From Cytophagales bacterium (GTDB lineage: Bacteria > Bacteroidota > Bacteroidia > Cytophagales > Thermoflexibacteraceae), in the NCBI GenBank assembly GCA_013299115.1, contig JAAFKA010000008.1, positions 124,001-188,000 on the forward strand: DNA of 64,000 nt. Direction: 5' to 3'. Numbering within the stretch: the first letter of the stretch is position 1; each line of letters starts with the position of its first letter. Below are positions 32,698 to 42,820 of this stretch, one piece after another. Below the pieces are notes generated by a model. The model had not been told where the DNA came from and ran no database searches. It saw nothing but the letters and a program-made list of their open reading frames with translations. The position numbers and the translations under genes were made by a program.

Positions 32698-33154
32698 CCT
32701 CGGCAGTGGTCGATAGACCCTGCCGATGGTTTCTTCGTCCTCCGTTCAACCATCGGCAGGGTCTATCGACCACTGCCGAGGTTTCACTTCATTTCTACCT
32801 CCTCCGTTCAACCATCGGCAGGGTCTATCGACCACTGCCGAGGTTTCACTTCATTTCTACCTCCTCCGTTCAACCATCGGCAGGGTCTATCGACCACTGC
32901 CGAGGTTTTCACTTCATTTCTACCTCCTCCGTTCAACCATCGGCAGGGTCTATTGACCACTGCCGAGGTTTCACTTCATTTCTACCTCCCGCCGTTCAAC
33001 CATCGGCAGGGTCTATCGACCACTGCCGAGGTTTCACTTCATTTCTACCTCCTCCGTTCAACCATCGGCAGGGTCTATCGACCACTGCCGAGGTTTCACT
33101 TCATTTCTACCTCCTCCGTTCAACCATCGGCAGGGTCTATCGACCACTGCCGAG
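32698..33154 (+). repeat. 62-bp tandem repeat array, seven direct copies plus one inverted
   Basis: Direct copies begin at 32750, 32812, 32874, 32937, 33000, 33062 and 33124 (period 62-63). An inverted partial copy is at 32698-32729. Each unit holds the hairpin TCGGCAGGGTC / GACCACTGCCGA and then a constant TTTCACTTCATTTCTACCTC spacer. Units differ by at most a base or two. Lies between convergent genes. Confidence 0.9.
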
Positions 33155-33165
33155 ATTTCACTACG

Positions 33166-35122: not shown

Positions 35123-37597
35123 ATGAAATTTCGTATAGCCTCTGTATTGCCTCATTTGGTTTGCATCTTCGTCATCTATGCAATTACAATTATCTATTTC
35201 AAGCCTGAGTTTTTTGAAGGCAAACTGTTAGTAAAGTCCGATATTGTCCACTACGAAGGTGGGGCAAAAGAAACGCAAGACTATAATTATAATCCCAAAA
35301 ATACCGAGCATACTATGTGGACAGGTAGTATGTTTAGTGGTATGCCTGTGTATCTATTGCACACTGTATTTTATGACCAGCCTTTGGTATGGATAGACCA
35401 TACTTTTAAAGGCATATTTTTTAACGATGGCGATGCCAAAAACTTGTTTATTTTGCTCTTGGGTATGTATGCAGGTTTGCTTTGTTTTGGTATTTCGCCT
35501 TATTTGGCTTTGATTGGGGCTATTTCCTTTGCCCTGAGTACCTATAATTTGGTCATTATCTATGCAGGACACCTTACAAAAGTTTGGGCTATTGCTTATT
35601 CTCCTTTGGTCTTGGGTGGTGCTTTTTTGGTACTTCGCCAAACAGCCCTGCACAAAAAATTGTTGGGTTTTGGAATTTTTGCTTTGAGTTTGACTTTGGA
35701 GTTGAGAGCAAGCCACATGCAAATTTCTTATTATTTGGCTTTTATTTGTATTTTTCTCATTATCAGTGAGTTGTATAGTGCTTATGCAAGCAAACAATTC
35801 AAACCTTTTGTGCAGTCGGTTGCTCTGTTGGCAGTAGGCGGGGCATTGGCAGTTGGCACATTTGCAGGCAGGTTATTGGTAACTTCCGAATACAGCAAAT
35901 ATTCGACCAGAGGCAAGGCAGAATTGAGCAGCAATGCAGACGAAAAAGGCACAACAGCCGAAAAACAAGACGGATTAAGCAAAGAATACGCCTTCGGGTG
36001 GAGTCAGGGCAAAGCCGAAACTTTGACTTTGTTAATTCCTAACCTCTATGGTGGGGCAAGTGGCGAAACTATCAAACAAGGCACATCTGAAAGCAAAAAA
36101 TTGGCGGAGTTGGCAGGGCAGGAGCTGCGTGATGATGTGCAGTTGCCAACGTATTGGGGTGAGCAGCCCTTCACCTCCGCACCTGTGTATGCGGGGGCAG
36201 TGGTTTGTTTTTTGTTTGTGTTGGGTCTGTTGTTCTTAGAAAACAAGCAAAAGTATTGGTTTTTGGCAGGTTTTTTACTCATGTGTATGTTTGCATGGGG
36301 TAGCAATTTGGCGTGGTTTAACTATACCTTATTCGATTATTTCCCCGCCTTCAATAAATTCAGGTCAGTTTCTATGGCGTTGAGTTTGGCAGTGATGCTG
36401 ATGGCAATGGGCGGCGTGGTAGCCTTAGACCAAATTTTAGACCAAAAATTTAGTGCCGATGCCCAGAAAAAACTATTCCTTGCCTTTGGCATTACAGGAG
36501 GTTTTGCTCTGTTTTTGTGGCTGATGGGAACAGCTTTTTTCAGCTTTTCCTCACCCAAAGATGAGCAATACAAGCAAATGATAGAAATTATTATCAACTA
36601 CCGCAAATATATGTTCAAGGCAGATGCTTTGCGGACAGCCTTTTTCATTCTCTTGGCAACGGCAGCTATTTGGTTGGTGTGGAAAGAAAAAATAAGCAAA
36701 ATCGTTGCCTTAGCCCTTATTGGTATCGTCAGCACCATAGATTTGTGGGGTGTGGGCAAAAGATATGTTAGCGAAGACCAATTTCAGGCGAATGTAGCCA
36801 AAACTTTACACCAACCTACACCCGCCGACAATTTGATTTTGCAAGACAAAGATTTGAGTTACAGGGTGCTGAACTTCCAAAATCCGTTTAATGATGCCGA
36901 AACTTCTTACTTTCACAAGTCGGTTGGAGGTTATTTTGCAGCCAAATTACGCCGCTACCAAGAGTTGTATGAAAGGCAAATAGAAAAACAAATGCAAAAA
37001 GTGGGAGCAGACCTCAAAACAGCACCACAATTTGAGAACTACCACATCTTGAATATGCTCAATGCAAGGTATTTCAAATTTGGTGATGAAACCAATGCGG
37101 TACTCAAAAACCCTGCTGCGTTGGGCAATGCGTGGTTTGTGAGTAGCCTGAAAACAGTAAACAGTGCAGACGAAGAAATGGCAGCCCTCGACCAGCTCAA
37201 CACCAAAACTACGGCTGTTGTCGATGGGTCTAAGTTTAAGGTAAGCAGCCAACAATTTGCCTTAGACAGCACAGCCTCTGCCCGCATGACAGGCTACACG
37301 CCAAGAGAGGTAAATTATGAAACCAACAACGCACAAAAAGGCTTTTTGGTGTTTTCAGAAATCTACTACCCCGAAGGTTGGGAAATAACCTTAGACAACC
37401 AACCCGCCGAAATGGTGAGGGTAAACTACGTTTTGCGAGCAATGGAAATTCCTGCGGGCAAACACACTGTAAAAATGGTTTTTAACCCTTCTTCTTACCG
37501 CACAGGTAGCTTGATAACGCAAATTTCTGCTATCTTGGTTGGGTTGCTTTTCTTGGCATCAGTAGTTTGGGCAGTGAAAAAAGAGGTTGAGGCTTAG
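35123..37597 (+). CDS. YfhO family membrane protein
   Basis: 824 residues, with ~12 spans in the N-terminal two thirds. Start MKFRIASVLPHLVCIFVIYA, then extracytosolic YFEGKLLVKSDIVHYEGGAK-like loops and FRSVSMALSLAVMLMAMGGV. The C-terminal ~170 residues are a soluble beta-rich domain (FSEIYYPEGWEITLDNQPAE) followed by a last span. YfhO-type proteins are GT-C-like membrane proteins implicated in glycosylation of wall polymers or lipoproteins in Firmicutes; the role in Bacteroidota is unknown. Single gene between repeats. Confidence 0.85.
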   Translation: MKFRIASVLPHLVCIFVIYAITIIYFKPEFFEGKLLVKSDIVHYEGGAKETQDYNYNPKNTEHTMWTGSMFSGMPVYLLHTVFYDQPLVWIDHTFKGIFFNDGDAKNLFILLLGMYAGLLCFGISPYLALIGAISFALSTYNLVIIYAGHLTKVWAIAYSPLVLGGAFLVLRQTALHKKLLGFGIFALSLTLELRASHMQISYYLAFICIFLIISELYSAYASKQFKPFVQSVALLAVGGALAVGTFAGRLLVTSEYSKYSTRGKAELSSNADEKGTTAEKQDGLSKEYAFGWSQGKAETLTLLIPNLYGGASGETIKQGTSESKKLAELAGQELRDDVQLPTYWGEQPFTSAPVYAGAVVCFLFVLGLLFLENKQKYWFLAGFLLMCMFAWGSNLAWFNYTLFDYFPAFNKFRSVSMALSLAVMLMAMGGVVALDQILDQKFSADAQKKLFLAFGITGGFALFLWLMGTAFFSFSSPKDEQYKQMIEIIINYRKYMFKADALRTAFFILLATAAIWLVWKEKISKIVALALIGIVSTIDLWGVGKRYVSEDQFQANVAKTLHQPTPADNLILQDKDLSYRVLNFQNPFNDAETSYFHKSVGGYFAAKLRRYQELYERQIEKQMQKVGADLKTAPQFENYHILNMLNARYFKFGDETNAVLKNPAALGNAWFVSSLKTVNSADEEMAALDQLNTKTTAVVDGSKFKVSSQQFALDSTASARMTGYTPREVNYETNNAQKGFLVFSEIYYPEGWEITLDNQPAEMVRVNYVLRAMEIPAGKHTVKMVFNPSSYRTGSLITQISAILVGLLFLASVVWAVKKEVEA

Positions 37598-37784: not shown

Positions 37785-40700
37785 ATGCAAAATTTCACAG
37801 ACGTTTTTATCTCTTATGGCAGGAAACAGTCCAAATTCTTTGCCACCCAACTCTATAATCAGTTGTTGGCAAACGGCTATACGGCTTGGTTTGACCAAAA
37901 CGATATTCCGTTGGGTGTGGACTACCAAAACCAGATAGATGACGGCATAGAAAAAGCTCACAATTTTTTGTTTATTATTTCTCCACACTCCGTAGTTTCG
38001 CCTTATTGCCGTTTGGAAGTGGAGTTGGCTTACAAACACCGTAAACGGATTATCCCTATTTTGCACGTAGAGGGGTTTGAGTTTGAGAAATTGCACCCCA
38101 TTATTGGCAAAATTAATTGGATTTATTTGCGTGAAACTTTGCCCCAAGATAGCATAGATTGGCATCAAGCCCAACCCGCAGACGACTTCGAGAAGGGTTT
38201 TGCAGGTTTGCTCAACTTGCTTACAACCCAACAAGATTATGTAGCCCAACATACCGCACTGCTTTACCACGCTTTGGCTTGGGAAAGAAACCAACAGACT
38301 ACTCACAATCTTTTGGTGGGCAACGACAGATTAGCTGCCGAACAGTGGCTTTTAACCGAATTTAAACCACCCGCCCAGCCCCCTTGCGAACCTTCGGATT
38401 TGCACGCCGAATTTATTTGCGAAAGTAAGAAAAACGCAAATAACCTCATGACTGATGTTTTTATTTGTGCAGCCGACAAAGAAAATGTGATTGCAACCAC
38501 CACAGAAGACAGCTATGGCAACATAAATGAGGAGGATTTGAAACAGGCAATCAAAAAAATGCTCGAAAAGTCTTGCATTACCACGTGGGTACATCACAAA
38601 GATATTCAAAAAGGCGAGGACACCGAAAAAGCAATTTTGCAAGGCATAGAACAGGCAGATAATTTTTTGTTTTTTATTTCCAATGCTTCCCTTGCTTCGC
38701 AGCGTTGTTTGAAGGAATTGGAATATGCTGCATTGTGGAAAAAACGCATCATTCCTTTGCTTATAGAAAAAGTGGAGGAGGAGAAATTTCCAAAAGAAAT
38801 AAAAGGTTTGCACTACATCAATTTTATAGACAATATAGAAAGAAAATTGATTAGGCAGGAAATGTCTGATTTTCAGAAAGATATAAACGAATTGTTGCAC
38901 GAAATTCAAACAGACGAAACCTATCACAACCAACACAAAGTATTTTTGACCCAAGCCCTCAAATGGCAACGCAACCACAAAAATAATGCGTTTTTGTTGA
39001 GAGGTTACAACTTGCAAAATGCTCAAACTTTTTTGGCATCGGGCAAAAACCGCACACAACACCAACCGACAAGGTTGCACAAAATTCTTATCTCTGAAAG
39101 TGCAGCCAAAATAGGGCAGTTGAGCAGCGAAGTGTTTATTTCCTATTCTCGAACCGATGGAGATTTTGCCCGCCAACTCAACAATGAATTGCAGAGCATA
39201 GGCAAAACCACATGGTTCGACCAAGAAAGCATAGCCACAGGTGCTAATTTTCAGAAAGAAATCTACAAAGGCATAGAAAATTCAGACAATTTTTTGTTTA
39301 TCATTTCAGACAAAGCTCTTGCCTCGCCTTTTTGCAGAGATGAAGTGGAGTATGCAGTCAGTTTGAACAAAAGATTTGTTACAGTCCTCATACCCGAAGG
39401 GCTGCACAACCCCGAATTATTGGCAGCTTACCCCGATTTGGCAAAAATTCAATGGATTGATTTTTGCAAAAAAGACTTCGAAAAAGCATTTTTTGAATTG
39501 ATAAACACCCTCAATACCGACAGGGAGTATATTCACAACCACACCAAATATTCGCAACGGGCTACGGATTGGCAGGACAGACAAAGAAGTCCCGATTTGC
39601 TCTTGCAAGGTGAATTTTTGCTACTTGCCAAAACGTGGATAGAAGAAGCCGAAAAATTGCGAAAAAAACCCTTGCCACCCGAAAATGTGAAGGACTACAT
39701 TGTGGCAAGTGAAAGAGCATGGCAAAGTCGGTTGCAAAAAGAGGAGGAGCAACGCAACCGAGAGGCACTATTAGAACAGGAAAAAATAGAGGCTTTGCAA
39801 AAAACCATAGCCTTGCAACAGAGGTCTGCCCGCAGGCAACGCTGGTTTTTGTTGGCTGCTCTGTTGCTTACAGGCGTGGCGGTGGCGGGCTATGTGCAGG
39901 CTTACTTTTCGCAAAAGCAAATGGAAAAGCAAAGCATAGAGTTAGCAAAGCAAAGCAACTATGCACACGAACAGGCAGTTTTGGCAGCACAAGAGCAAAA
40001 AGAAGCCAAAATTAATGCAGACAGAGCCGAATTGGAAAGGAAAAAAGCCCAACACGCATTTTATGAACTCCAAACCCAAAGTCAAGCTACTGAAAAACAA
40101 CGCCACTTGGCTCTACACAACTTAGAAAAAGCAAAGGAAAATGAGGAGGCAGCCAAACGCAATTTGCTCTTAGCCGAAAAAGCCCAGCAAGAGGCATTGA
40201 AAAATTTGGAAATTGCAAAAGTGAGTGAAACCAAAGCAAACGAAGCCTTAGAAAAACGCAACAAATTGATAAATTTCTTCGGTTTTGGGGCAGAAAACAG
40301 GGCTTGGGCATACAGAGATGGCAAGTTTGCAATCATAGACAAAGATGGGAATAAATTTACAGATTTTGTTTTTGGCGAGCCTACGCCTTTTCAGAATGGT
40401 GTGGCACAGGCAGAATTGGACAACGATTTTGCAATAGTCAATGCCAATGGCGATACTTTAACGGCAGGTTATGAGTTTTTTGTGCATACGAATAATGATT
40501 TGATTTATACCAAAAAAAATAACCAATACGGCTTTATCAATGCCGATGGCAAGTTGGTAAACAATTCTATTTGGTTTGACAATGTATGGCAACCCAGCAT
40601 AGACAATCAAGTCGGTTGGATACGAAAAAATGGCTTGTGGGGACTGATGAGTACATCGGGCAATTTGCTAATTAACCCCCAATTTGACGAAAAAACGGAC

Positions 40701-42332
40701 TTCTCCAATCAATTAGCAAGGGTAAGAAAAGAGCAAAAATGGGGTTTGCTGAACAACGAAGGCGTAATTGTAGTGCCACCAACGTATGATTCGGTAGCTA
40801 TTTTGCAAAACTCTTATTCACGTTTGCAAAGAAATGCAAAAGTAGGACTTGCAGACCCAAAAGGCAACTTGACTTTGCCCTTGATTTACAACGAAATTAT
40901 AGAATTAGATGCCAACTTGCTCATGGTGGCAGACTCCAACAACCGTTGGGCTTTGTTTCCCAAAACAGGTTTGCCGCTTACGCCCAAGCCTTATTTGGTT
41001 TTGGAAAAAAGTGGCAAAAAAGGAATTTTACAGGCAAAAAATGAGCAAGGTTGGGGCTTGATAGACCTCAAAGGCAGGGAATTAATCACGCCACAGTTCG
41101 ACAATATAGAAACTTTCGATGCTCACGACTGGGCAGTGGTAAGCAAACAAGGCAACTATGGCGTGCTAAATGGCAAAGGAGATTGGATAATTCCTGCTGA
41201 TTATCAGGCTATTACAATTTTGCCAAATTTGGTATTGGCAGCCAAAAAAGAAAACCGTTGGGGTTTGCTCGACTCAAAAGGCAAAGTTTTATTGCCTTTG
41301 ACTTACGACAAAATAGAACCTACTGAAACTGCCGAAATAGTCCGTTTGGTACAGGCAAACAAAATAGGCTTGTTCAACGTGCAAAGCAAAACCTTGTTGC
41401 CTGCGGACTATGACGAAATTTTGCCCTTTAAACCCAACCTTGCCTTTGTTCGCAAAGAAGGCAAATGGGGAGTTATCAACAAACTACTCAAAGTATTGGC
41501 AGGCACAAATTTCGACCAGATTTACGACTTTTCAGGGGGTTTGGCACGTTGCAAACGCAACAACAAATTCAGCTACCTCGATGGCAATGGCAAACTGATT
41601 TTACCCCTCAACTTAGAAGATGCCTTCGATGCTTTTGAAGGGTTGGCTGCGGTTAAGAGTGAAGGCAGATGGGGCTTTATCAACGACAAAGGCAAATTTA
41701 TTATCAAACCGCAATTCGACAAGGTCTATGCTTTTTCTGAAGGATTGGCGGGGGTGCAACTCAACGGCAAATGGGGTTTTTTGAGCCACCAAACGCAAAC
41801 AGTGGTCATACAACCGCAATTTGATGATGTAGGCAGCTTGCAAAACGGCATAGCCACTGTAACACAAAACGAATTGTGGGGCTATGTGGACAGCAAAGGC
41901 AGCATAATTGTAGCCCCGCAGTTTGAGTGGGCAGACAATTTTGAGAAAGAAAGTCAGGTAGCACAGGTGCAAAAAAACGGCAAAATAGGTTTTGTCAATC
42001 GCAAAGGCGAAATTGTCATTGCCCCGCAGTTTGAAAACGTGAGCAAATTTACCAACGGCTTTGCCTTTGTCCGCCGTTTCAACAAAGTTGGTATTTTGTC
42101 GCAAACAGGGCAGTTGGTAGCTTCGCCAAAATATGACGAAATCAAACCATTCAGGCAAGGATTGGCTGCGGTGCGGATAGACGAAAAATGGGGTTACATC
42201 AACGCCACAGGGCTGTTAGTCATACCTGCTTTGTTCGACTCTGCCGACTCTTTTTTCAACGACAAAGCAAAAGTAAGCCGTTACGGAGAGTTTTTTTATA
42301 TCAATGCAGAGGGGAAAATGGCGATGAGGTAA
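37785..42332 (+). CDS. Three-TIR, single-span, coiled-coil, WG-repeat protein
   Basis: 1515 residues from the ATG at 37785. Three TIR modules: TIR1 ~4-145 (TDVFISYGRKQSKFF, SPYCRLEVELA with Glu78), a diverged TIR2 ~222-375 (DVFICAADKEN, SQRCLKELEYA with Glu311), and TIR3 ~448-575 (EVFISYSRTDGDFA, SPFCRDEVEYA with Glu520). These Glu positions fit the catalytic Glu of NAD-cleaving bacterial TIRs. Each module is followed by a similar helical linker (HxxxLxxALxW ... LLxG ... W/F). A basic segment (SARRQRW) precedes one span (~687-706), a coiled coil follows (~707-805) and then WG repeats (GxWGxI/L.xxGxxxxxPxFD) fill ~815-1515. The positive-inside rule puts TIRs in the cytoplasm and WG repeats outside. 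TIR proteins of this build usually end in WD40 repeats; WG repeats are unusual. Confidence 0.88.
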   Translation: MQNFTDVFISYGRKQSKFFATQLYNQLLANGYTAWFDQNDIPLGVDYQNQIDDGIEKAHNFLFIISPHSVVSPYCRLEVELAYKHRKRIIPILHVEGFEFEKLHPIIGKINWIYLRETLPQDSIDWHQAQPADDFEKGFAGLLNLLTTQQDYVAQHTALLYHALAWERNQQTTHNLLVGNDRLAAEQWLLTEFKPPAQPPCEPSDLHAEFICESKKNANNLMTDVFICAADKENVIATTTEDSYGNINEEDLKQAIKKMLEKSCITTWVHHKDIQKGEDTEKAILQGIEQADNFLFFISNASLASQRCLKELEYAALWKKRIIPLLIEKVEEEKFPKEIKGLHYINFIDNIERKLIRQEMSDFQKDINELLHEIQTDETYHNQHKVFLTQALKWQRNHKNNAFLLRGYNLQNAQTFLASGKNRTQHQPTRLHKILISESAAKIGQLSSEVFISYSRTDGDFARQLNNELQSIGKTTWFDQESIATGANFQKEIYKGIENSDNFLFIISDKALASPFCRDEVEYAVSLNKRFVTVLIPEGLHNPELLAAYPDLAKIQWIDFCKKDFEKAFFELINTLNTDREYIHNHTKYSQRATDWQDRQRSPDLLLQGEFLLLAKTWIEEAEKLRKKPLPPENVKDYIVASERAWQSRLQKEEEQRNREALLEQEKIEALQKTIALQQRSARRQRWFLLAALLLTGVAVAGYVQAYFSQKQMEKQSIELAKQSNYAHEQAVLAAQEQKEAKINADRAELERKKAQHAFYELQTQSQATEKQRHLALHNLEKAKENEEAAKRNLLLAEKAQQEALKNLEIAKVSETKANEALEKRNKLINFFGFGAENRAWAYRDGKFAIIDKDGNKFTDFVFGEPTPFQNGVAQAELDNDFAIVNANGDTLTAGYEFFVHTNNDLIYTKKNNQYGFINADGKLVNNSIWFDNVWQPSIDNQVGWIRKNGLWGLMSTSGNLLINPQFDEKTDFSNQLARVRKEQKWGLLNNEGVIVVPPTYDSVAILQNSYSRLQRNAKVGLADPKGNLTLPLIYNEIIELDANLLMVADSNNRWALFPKTGLPLTPKPYLVLEKSGKKGILQAKNEQGWGLIDLKGRELITPQFDNIETFDAHDWAVVSKQGNYGVLNGKGDWIIPADYQAITILPNLVLAAKKENRWGLLDSKGKVLLPLTYDKIEPTETAEIVRLVQANKIGLFNVQSKTLLPADYDEILPFKPNLAFVRKEGKWGVINKLLKVLAGTNFDQIYDFSGGLARCKRNNKFSYLDGNGKLILPLNLEDAFDAFEGLAAVKSEGRWGFINDKGKFIIKPQFDKVYAFSEGLAGVQLNGKWGFLSHQTQTVVIQPQFDDVGSLQNGIATVTQNELWGYVDSKGSIIVAPQFEWADNFEKESQVAQVQKNGKIGFVNRKGEIVIAPQFENVSKFTNGFAFVRRFNKVGILSQTGQLVASPKYDEIKPFRQGLAAVRIDEKWGYINATGLLVIPALFDSADSFFNDKAKVSRYGEFFYINAEGKMAMR

Positions 42333-42403: not shown

Positions 42404-42820
42404 ATGATTATCATGTTTTGTCAAGAAATTCAACTGCGAGTTCGTTATGCAGATACTGACCAAATGGGCTATGCCTATTATGGCAATTATGCTATGTATT
42501 ATGAAGTGGCTCGTACAGAAGTATTTAGAAGTTTGGGCTTGCCTTACAAAGAAACCGAAGCTATGGGGTTTCTGATGCCTGTTTTAGAAAACCATTCTTA
42601 CTATCATGCACCTGCCTATTATGACGATTTGCTTACCATTAAAGTAATGATAAAAGAAGTTCCAATGGTAAAAATTCGATTCCATTATGAGTTTTACAAC
42701 CCCGCTAAGGAATTGATACACACAGGCGACACCTTATTAGTTTTTTTACGCAGTGATACACGAAAGCCTTGTAGGATACCGCCTGCTTTTTTGGAAAAAA
42801 TAAAACCCTATTTTGAGTAA
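42404..42820 (+). CDS. Hotdog-fold acyl-CoA thioesterase (YbgC/FadM-like)
   Basis: 138 residues. ELQLRVRYADTDQMGYAYYG-like N-terminus with the Asp (YADTDQMG) that acts in 4HBT-type thioesterases, then NYAMYYEVARTEVFRSLGLP. Likely cleaves short acyl-CoA or acyl-ACP thioesters in the cytosol. The start could also be 42413 (MFCQEI), which fits family N-termini slightly better. Only 71 bases after the TIR-WG gene but with its own AT-rich leader. Confidence 0.85.
   Translation: MIIMFCQEIQLRVRYADTDQMGYAYYGNYAMYYEVARTEVFRSLGLPYKETEAMGFLMPVLENHSYYHAPAYYDDLLTIKVMIKEVPMVKIRFHYEFYNPAKELIHTGDTLLVFLRSDTRKPCRIPPAFLEKIKPYFE

What the first reader, a model, noticed from the sequence alone, without database searches (positions are those of the whole stretch)
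37785..42332. Transmembrane protein with three TIR modules and a long WG-repeat domain
Seen: three TIR-like modules, each with its own helical linker, then a basic stretch, one hydrophobic span, a coiled coil and ~700 residues of WG repeats. Known: bacterial TIR domains often cleave NAD in antiphage responses and are usually coupled to a sensor; large TIR proteins mostly end in WD40, TPR or NACHT parts. Inferred: the positive-inside rule places the WG part in the periplasm, so this could be an envelope sensor that switches on cytosolic TIR NADases. The middle TIR has lost the FISYS start and may be regulatory. I do not know this build as a described system.
Basis: partly seen in the sequence, partly recalled or inferred. 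Interest (0 to 1): 0.78.

Follow-up and report, generated by a model that had tools for sequence, protein, structure and literature searches.

The report
Triple-TIR membrane receptor, WG-repeat sensor
This bacterial gene belongs to a so far unnamed family of membrane proteins that keep three immune-type TIR domains inside the cell and swap the sensor part outside it, which makes them look like a bacterial counterpart of Toll-like receptors.

Summary
Window 37785-42332 (+) encodes 1515 residues: three TIR modules, each with a helical linker, one membrane span (687-705), a coiled coil and about 13 WG repeats. It is one of seven paralogues in its genome and of about 70 relatives collected here from Cytophagales and cyanobacteria. 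All share a fixed TIR1-TIR2-TIR3-TM block; each TIR matches best its positional counterpart. The part behind the membrane differs: WD40 mostly, also TPR, WG, WG+FGE-sulfatase, DM9, LRR, dCache, CHASE2, multi-span or short. The closest paralogue (66% in the block) carries TPRs instead of WG. The Glu at the known NADase position is invariant in TIR1 and TIR3 (68/68) and mostly kept in TIR2 (60/68). NADase activity, ligand and antiphage role are untested, and the immediate flanks show no defence genes. Best reading: an outside-in receptor whose ectodomain controls cytosolic TIR assembly and NAD cleavage. I found no paper in the held library that describes this build.

The parts
37785..42332 (+). 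whole gene, 1515 aa
37794..38225 (+). TIR1 (residues 4-147), catalytic-position Glu78 at 38016-38018
   Evidence: Glu invariant in 68/68
38226..38438 (+). helical linker 1 (148-218)
   Evidence: in this genome the linker occurs only in the seven triple-TIR proteins
38439..38834 (+). TIR2 (219-350), degenerate start FICAA, Glu311 at 38715-38717, R307 instead of an aromatic
38835..39122 (+). helical linker 2 (351-446)
39123..39524 (+). TIR3 (447-580), Glu520 at 39342-39344
   Evidence: Glu invariant in 68/68
39525..39719 (+). helical linker 3 (581-645)
39720..39842 (+). long helix with basic end RSARRQRW before the membrane (646-686)
39843..39899 (+). single transmembrane span (687-705)
   Evidence: a span at the same place in the relatives examined, truncated ones apart
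39900..40268 (+). charged coiled-coil region (706-828)
   Evidence: 706-719 and 802-828 modelled as helix, the rest read from sequence
40296..42329 (+). WG-repeat ectodomain (838-1515), all-beta, propeller-like blades

Best explanation
It is a single-pass inner-membrane receptor. The WG part lies in the periplasm and binds an unknown ligand or envelope state. Binding changes the packing of the long helix and coiled coil through the membrane (inferred). The three TIRs then assemble with those of neighbouring receptors; because TIR active sites are built between two TIRs, the covalent trio supplies TIR1 and TIR3 as enzyme and TIR2 mainly as a structural partner (inferred). The result would be NAD cleavage or a nucleotide signal in the cytosol (inferred from the catalytic Glu). 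Anatomy is shown and topology is well supported; ligand, switching and enzyme activity are not shown.
For: TIR folds and active-site Glu. Fixed order T1-T2-T3 in 68 proteins of the set, with positional orthology. One TM after linker 3. Positive-inside 68/70, mean 5.7 K+R against 2.7. Extracytoplasmic C-termini in relatives: dCache, CHASE2 E 6e-56 on a Kovacikia plasmid. Exported WG proteins, two of them encoded next to a triple-TIR gene (L067, about 20 bp downstream; L064, divergent neighbour). Variable C-terminus on a conserved block, 14 changes of type on the tree; in all 14 pairs of close relatives the C-terminus has diverged more than the TIR block, though for L052/L172 by only about 1 point. 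A nucleoside-deoxyribosyltransferase-like domain (DRHyd class) is next to or fused to some members, pointing to nucleotide signalling.
Against: No enzyme data; the Glu is conserved in more than 70% of all TIRs, also non-enzymatic ones (PMC7075850). WD40 and TPR, the commonest alternative and the nearest one, are often cytosolic in other proteins. The WG model has pTM 0.52 and only weak matches to solved propellers. The placing of the three TIRs as an active assembly could not be examined.
Confidence: 0.55

Rival explanations
1. The TIRs act as assembly scaffolds without NADase activity, recruiting other TIR or nucleotide-signalling proteins, as in TLR-MyD88 signalling.
For: TIR2 is degenerate in several members; DRHyd-like partners next to some members; Glu alone does not prove activity.
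Against: Glu invariant in TIR1 and TIR3 in 68/68 and aromatic residue at -4 mostly kept; TIR3 is close to NADase TIRs such as Cat1, SPARTA, SARM1, AbTIR, though non-enzymatic TIRs match about as well.
Confidence: 0.2
2. The C-terminal part is cytosolic: the hydrophobic span is a peripheral anchor and the WG/WD40/TPR part senses cytosolic phage or host molecules, like STAND-WD40 systems.
For: WD40 and TPR parts occur in cytosolic bacterial conflict systems (PMC8195603, PMC7159879).
Against: Positive-inside in 68/70; dCache and CHASE2 C-termini; signal-peptide-like N-termini on stand-alone WG proteins.
Confidence: 0.1
3. It is an envelope-stress or environmental receptor with a housekeeping role, not a defence gene; NAD-derived signalling tunes physiology. 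(This can be true together with the best explanation; it differs in purpose.)
For: Flanked by ordinary genes with no PADLOC match on either side; five of the seven members have a same-type counterpart in a congener; dCache and CHASE2 bind small molecules.
Against: Patchy distribution: 19 of 241 genomes of the order, 1 of 395 (its own) in a phylum-wide sample; presence on Kovacikia and Bernardetia plasmids; many characterised bacterial TIR effectors are defensive.
Confidence: 0.3

Closest known systems
Toll-like receptors
   Same: single-pass receptor with outside sensor and cytosolic TIR
   Different: reverse order (TIR at the N-terminus), three TIRs in series, WG/WD40/TPR sensors instead of LRR; no sequence sign of direct descent
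SARM1, AbTIR, Cat1 and SPARTA TIR NADases
   Same: TIR fold and catalytic Glu
   Different: no membrane span in these, and one TIR per chain; here three TIRs are joined and tied to a membrane span
Thoeris ThsB and type III ThcB4
   Same: TIR sequence similarity (85 bits to the ThcB4 model)
   Different: far below the 220-bit cut-off, no defence partner found among the two flanking genes tested
Bacterial conflict systems with constant core and variable C-terminal sensor (VMAP, iSTAND, EACC; PMC7159879, PMC8195603)
   Same: same design principle: fixed core, exchangeable sensor, including FGE-type and CHASE2 parts
   Different: no NTPase in this protein; three TIRs and one membrane span as the constant part
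Bacteroidetes hybrid two-component sensors such as BT4663
   Same: large beta-propeller periplasmic sensor of a membrane receptor (weak structural likeness)
   Different: output is TIR, not histidine kinase

Membership tests
TIR superfamily | TIR fold/profile in each module | tested here: met
   Pfam TIR_2 three stretches; own-genome hits 92, 68 and 103 bits for TIR1, TIR2, TIR3; AF2 and VIA Z 15-20 for TIR1 and TIR3
TIR NADases | catalytic Glu at the conserved position | tested here: met
   E78 and E520 invariant 68/68, E311 60/68
TIR NADases | NAD hydrolysis | not testable with these tools
   needs an enzyme assay
WG-repeat proteins (PF14903) | profile over curated cut-off | tested here: met
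   385.8 bits against 25.6
Thoeris type III ThcB4 (NF058526) | score over the curated cut-off | tested here: not met
   85.1 against 220 bits
Retron-TIR (NF042941) | score over the curated cut-off | tested here: not met
   45 against 600 bits
Known anti-phage systems in PADLOC | partner genes at the flanks | tested here: inconclusive
   no match for the two immediate neighbours 35123-37597 and 42404-42820; wider flanks not scanned
Toll-like receptors | N-terminal LRR ectodomain, C-terminal single TIR | tested here: not met
   order is reversed, three TIRs, no LRR in this protein
Triple-TIR-TM family (defined here) | T1-T2-T3 in order, specific linker, TM after linker 3 | tested here: met

The most novel reading that the evidence does not exclude
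An undescribed class of bacterial outside-in TIR receptors, in which a covalent TIR1-TIR2-TIR3 chain is a pre-built segment of a TIR filament held inactive at the membrane, and the periplasmic sensor is exchanged in evolution (WG, WD40, TPR, LRR, dCache, CHASE2, DM9, FGE). One relative carries about nine TIR modules before the same membrane end, as if the segment had been lengthened.
Probability: 0.4. Interest if true: 0.85.

Novelty: new variant of a known kind. Interest (0 to 1): 0.64.

Why it matters
Described bacterial TIR systems mostly sense in the cytosol. A family that reads a signal outside the membrane and answers with TIR enzymes inside would be a bacterial analogue of Toll-like receptor signalling, would show an early-warning route at the envelope, and gives ready natural experiments: seven receptors in one genome with the same output and different sensors. 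The three fixed TIRs also offer a test of whether TIR active sites are assembled in cis.

Tried and rejected
Insertion or mobility at this site: the upstream neighbour is found in all genomes of the taxonomic family searched, but no other neighbour of the window matched in the flanks read, so no empty site could be shown. Phage or viral origin: no match in phages and none confirmed in viral contigs. Known WG structure by sequence: no significant match in PDB. Tolypothrix plasmid hit: first taken as triple-TIR, but only 196 residues of it match, so I read it as a single TIR module and left it out of the counts. WG fold: propeller-like matches are weak (Z up to 10.5, rmsd around 10), so 'propeller' is only a likeness. 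The phylum-wide count scored only two candidates per genome, so it is a lower bound. Signal-peptide calls rest on a simple hydrophobicity rule that also passes 100 of 285 other ORFs. Literature: no paper held joins TIR domains with WG repeats or names three TIR domains in bacteria; the library lacks most subscription journals.

Full report
What is there. The ORF at 37785-42332 (+) codes for 1515 residues. Pfam gives three TIR_2 stretches (E 5e-74) and 13 WG repeats (E 3e-118), nothing else over cut-off but two other TIR models. A model of residues 1-720 built on 35 relatives has pLDDT 89.7 and pTM 0.80; each of the three modules shows the TIR order of strands and helices followed by a helical linker, and the last linker runs into one long helix through the membrane span. 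TIR3 and TIR1 align to solved TIRs with Z 15 to 20 (TRR-2, SPARTA, SARM1, MyD88, AbTIR). TIR2 was not listed there, but it is matched by sequence (68 bits) and modelled alike.

It is a family. A search of 59 relatives finds the block again at about 35-57% identity. In the window's own genome the linker occurs 18 times at E 0.01 or better and only in seven proteins, all with TIR modules. The order T1-T2-T3 is kept in 68 proteins of the collected set, each module closest to its counterpart in the other proteins rather than to its neighbours. A survey of 241 genomes of the order finds the block in 19; a phylum sample of 395 finds only the window's own genome at a strict threshold with two candidates scored per genome. 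Named relatives are Flexithrix dorotheae, Bernardetia (plasmid), and cyanobacteria: UBA11370, Crocosphaera, Kovacikia (plasmid). Genome G559, same order as the window, has a contig of the same length as the Flexithrix record, so the window most likely comes from Cytophagales (inference). The annotated plasmid records call these genes only 'TIR domain-containing protein'.

The sensor part changes. C-termini are WD40 (most), TPR, WG, WG+FGE-sulfatase (two), DM9, LRR, dCache, CHASE2, WD40 with hemopexin repeats, multi-span or short unknown. Some members were labelled by likeness to a scanned relative, not scanned themselves. On a tree of the block (67 rows, quick method) C-terminal type needs 14 changes; it is clustered, so types are inherited for long but do switch. 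The window protein and paralogue L066 are sisters with full SH-aLRT support and 66% identical in the block, yet one carries WG and the other TPR; similarity fades in the coiled coil before residue 840. In 14 of 14 pairs of close relatives the C-terminus is less conserved than the TIR block, in one of them by only about one point; this fits either diversifying selection or weaker constraint.

Topology. K+R exceed on the TIR side of the span in 68 of 70 members and never on the other side. CHASE2 is an extracellular sensor domain (PMC8195603); dCache likewise from general knowledge, though the dCache hits are below Pfam's cut-off. Of 19 stand-alone WG proteins with a visible start, 18 have signal-peptide-like N-termini by my reading of the scores, against 100 of 285 other ORFs under the same crude rule. 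Two such exported WG genes lie beside triple-TIR genes: about 20 bp downstream of a WD40 member in the same genome (L067) and divergent from a short member (L064). Fusion in one case and neighbourhood in others suggests a working link, but two cases are few.

Catalysis. The Glu known to be needed in TIR NADases is E78, E311, E520. Over 68 relatives it is invariant in TIR1 and TIR3 and kept in 60 in TIR2. The residue four before it, aromatic in NADase TIRs such as SARM1 (general knowledge), is mostly aromatic in TIR1 and TIR3 and more variable in TIR2; in this protein TIR2 has R307. So TIR1 and TIR3 look competent and TIR2 looks weakened in this protein. The Glu occurs in most TIRs, so it does not prove activity (PMC7075850).

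Surroundings. Upstream (+) lies a large membrane protein and downstream a small thioesterase-like protein, then dihydroorotase and a carbamoyltransferase by eye; neither immediate neighbour has a PADLOC match. The site shows no synteny in the relatives read. Elsewhere, DRHyd-like genes precede some members, and in L154 the domain is fused in front of TIR1, which fits nucleotide-based signalling.

The ectodomain model (801-1515) is all-beta with pLDDT 83.5 but pTM 0.52. Foldseek lists propeller proteins including the periplasmic part of BT4663, but VIA-align gives Z up to 10.5 with rmsd around 10. I read this as propeller-like blades in an uncertain overall arrangement, filling the same slot as WD40 propellers in other members.

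Judgement. The more interesting finding is the family: a conserved triple-TIR membrane output with exchangeable sensors. I did not find it described in the held literature, which is incomplete.

Noticed in passing
L079 4359-12326 (G005): A 2656-residue relative with about nine TIR modules (roughly T1-T2-T1-T1-T2-T1-T2-T3 after a degenerate first one), ending in the same T3-TM-WD40 end.
   Followed up: partly
window 32730-33162: Seven near-identical 62-bp tandem copies between a histidine-kinase-like gene and a permease-like gene.
   Followed up: no
L067 3830-5029; L064 283-4770: Exported WG-repeat genes directly beside triple-TIR genes.
   Followed up: partly
L053 7481-7924, L081 2613-3023, L158 2357-2785 (upstream); L154 (fused): Nucleoside 2-deoxyribosyltransferase-like proteins next to or fused to triple-TIR proteins; Pfam confirmed for L053 and L154 only.
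   Followed up: partly
L052, L172: Members ending in WG repeats plus an FGE-sulfatase domain, a fold that retroelements diversify in other conflict systems (PMC10907252); no retroelement looked for here.
   Followed up: no
L159 1377-2549, L162 6155-7318: Unknown gene with a signal-peptide-like start overlapping the end of a triple-TIR-WD40 gene; no Pfam match for the L159 copy.
   Followed up: no
L148 5769-10616 (G559): Triple-TIR protein with WD40 and then hemopexin repeats.
   Followed up: no
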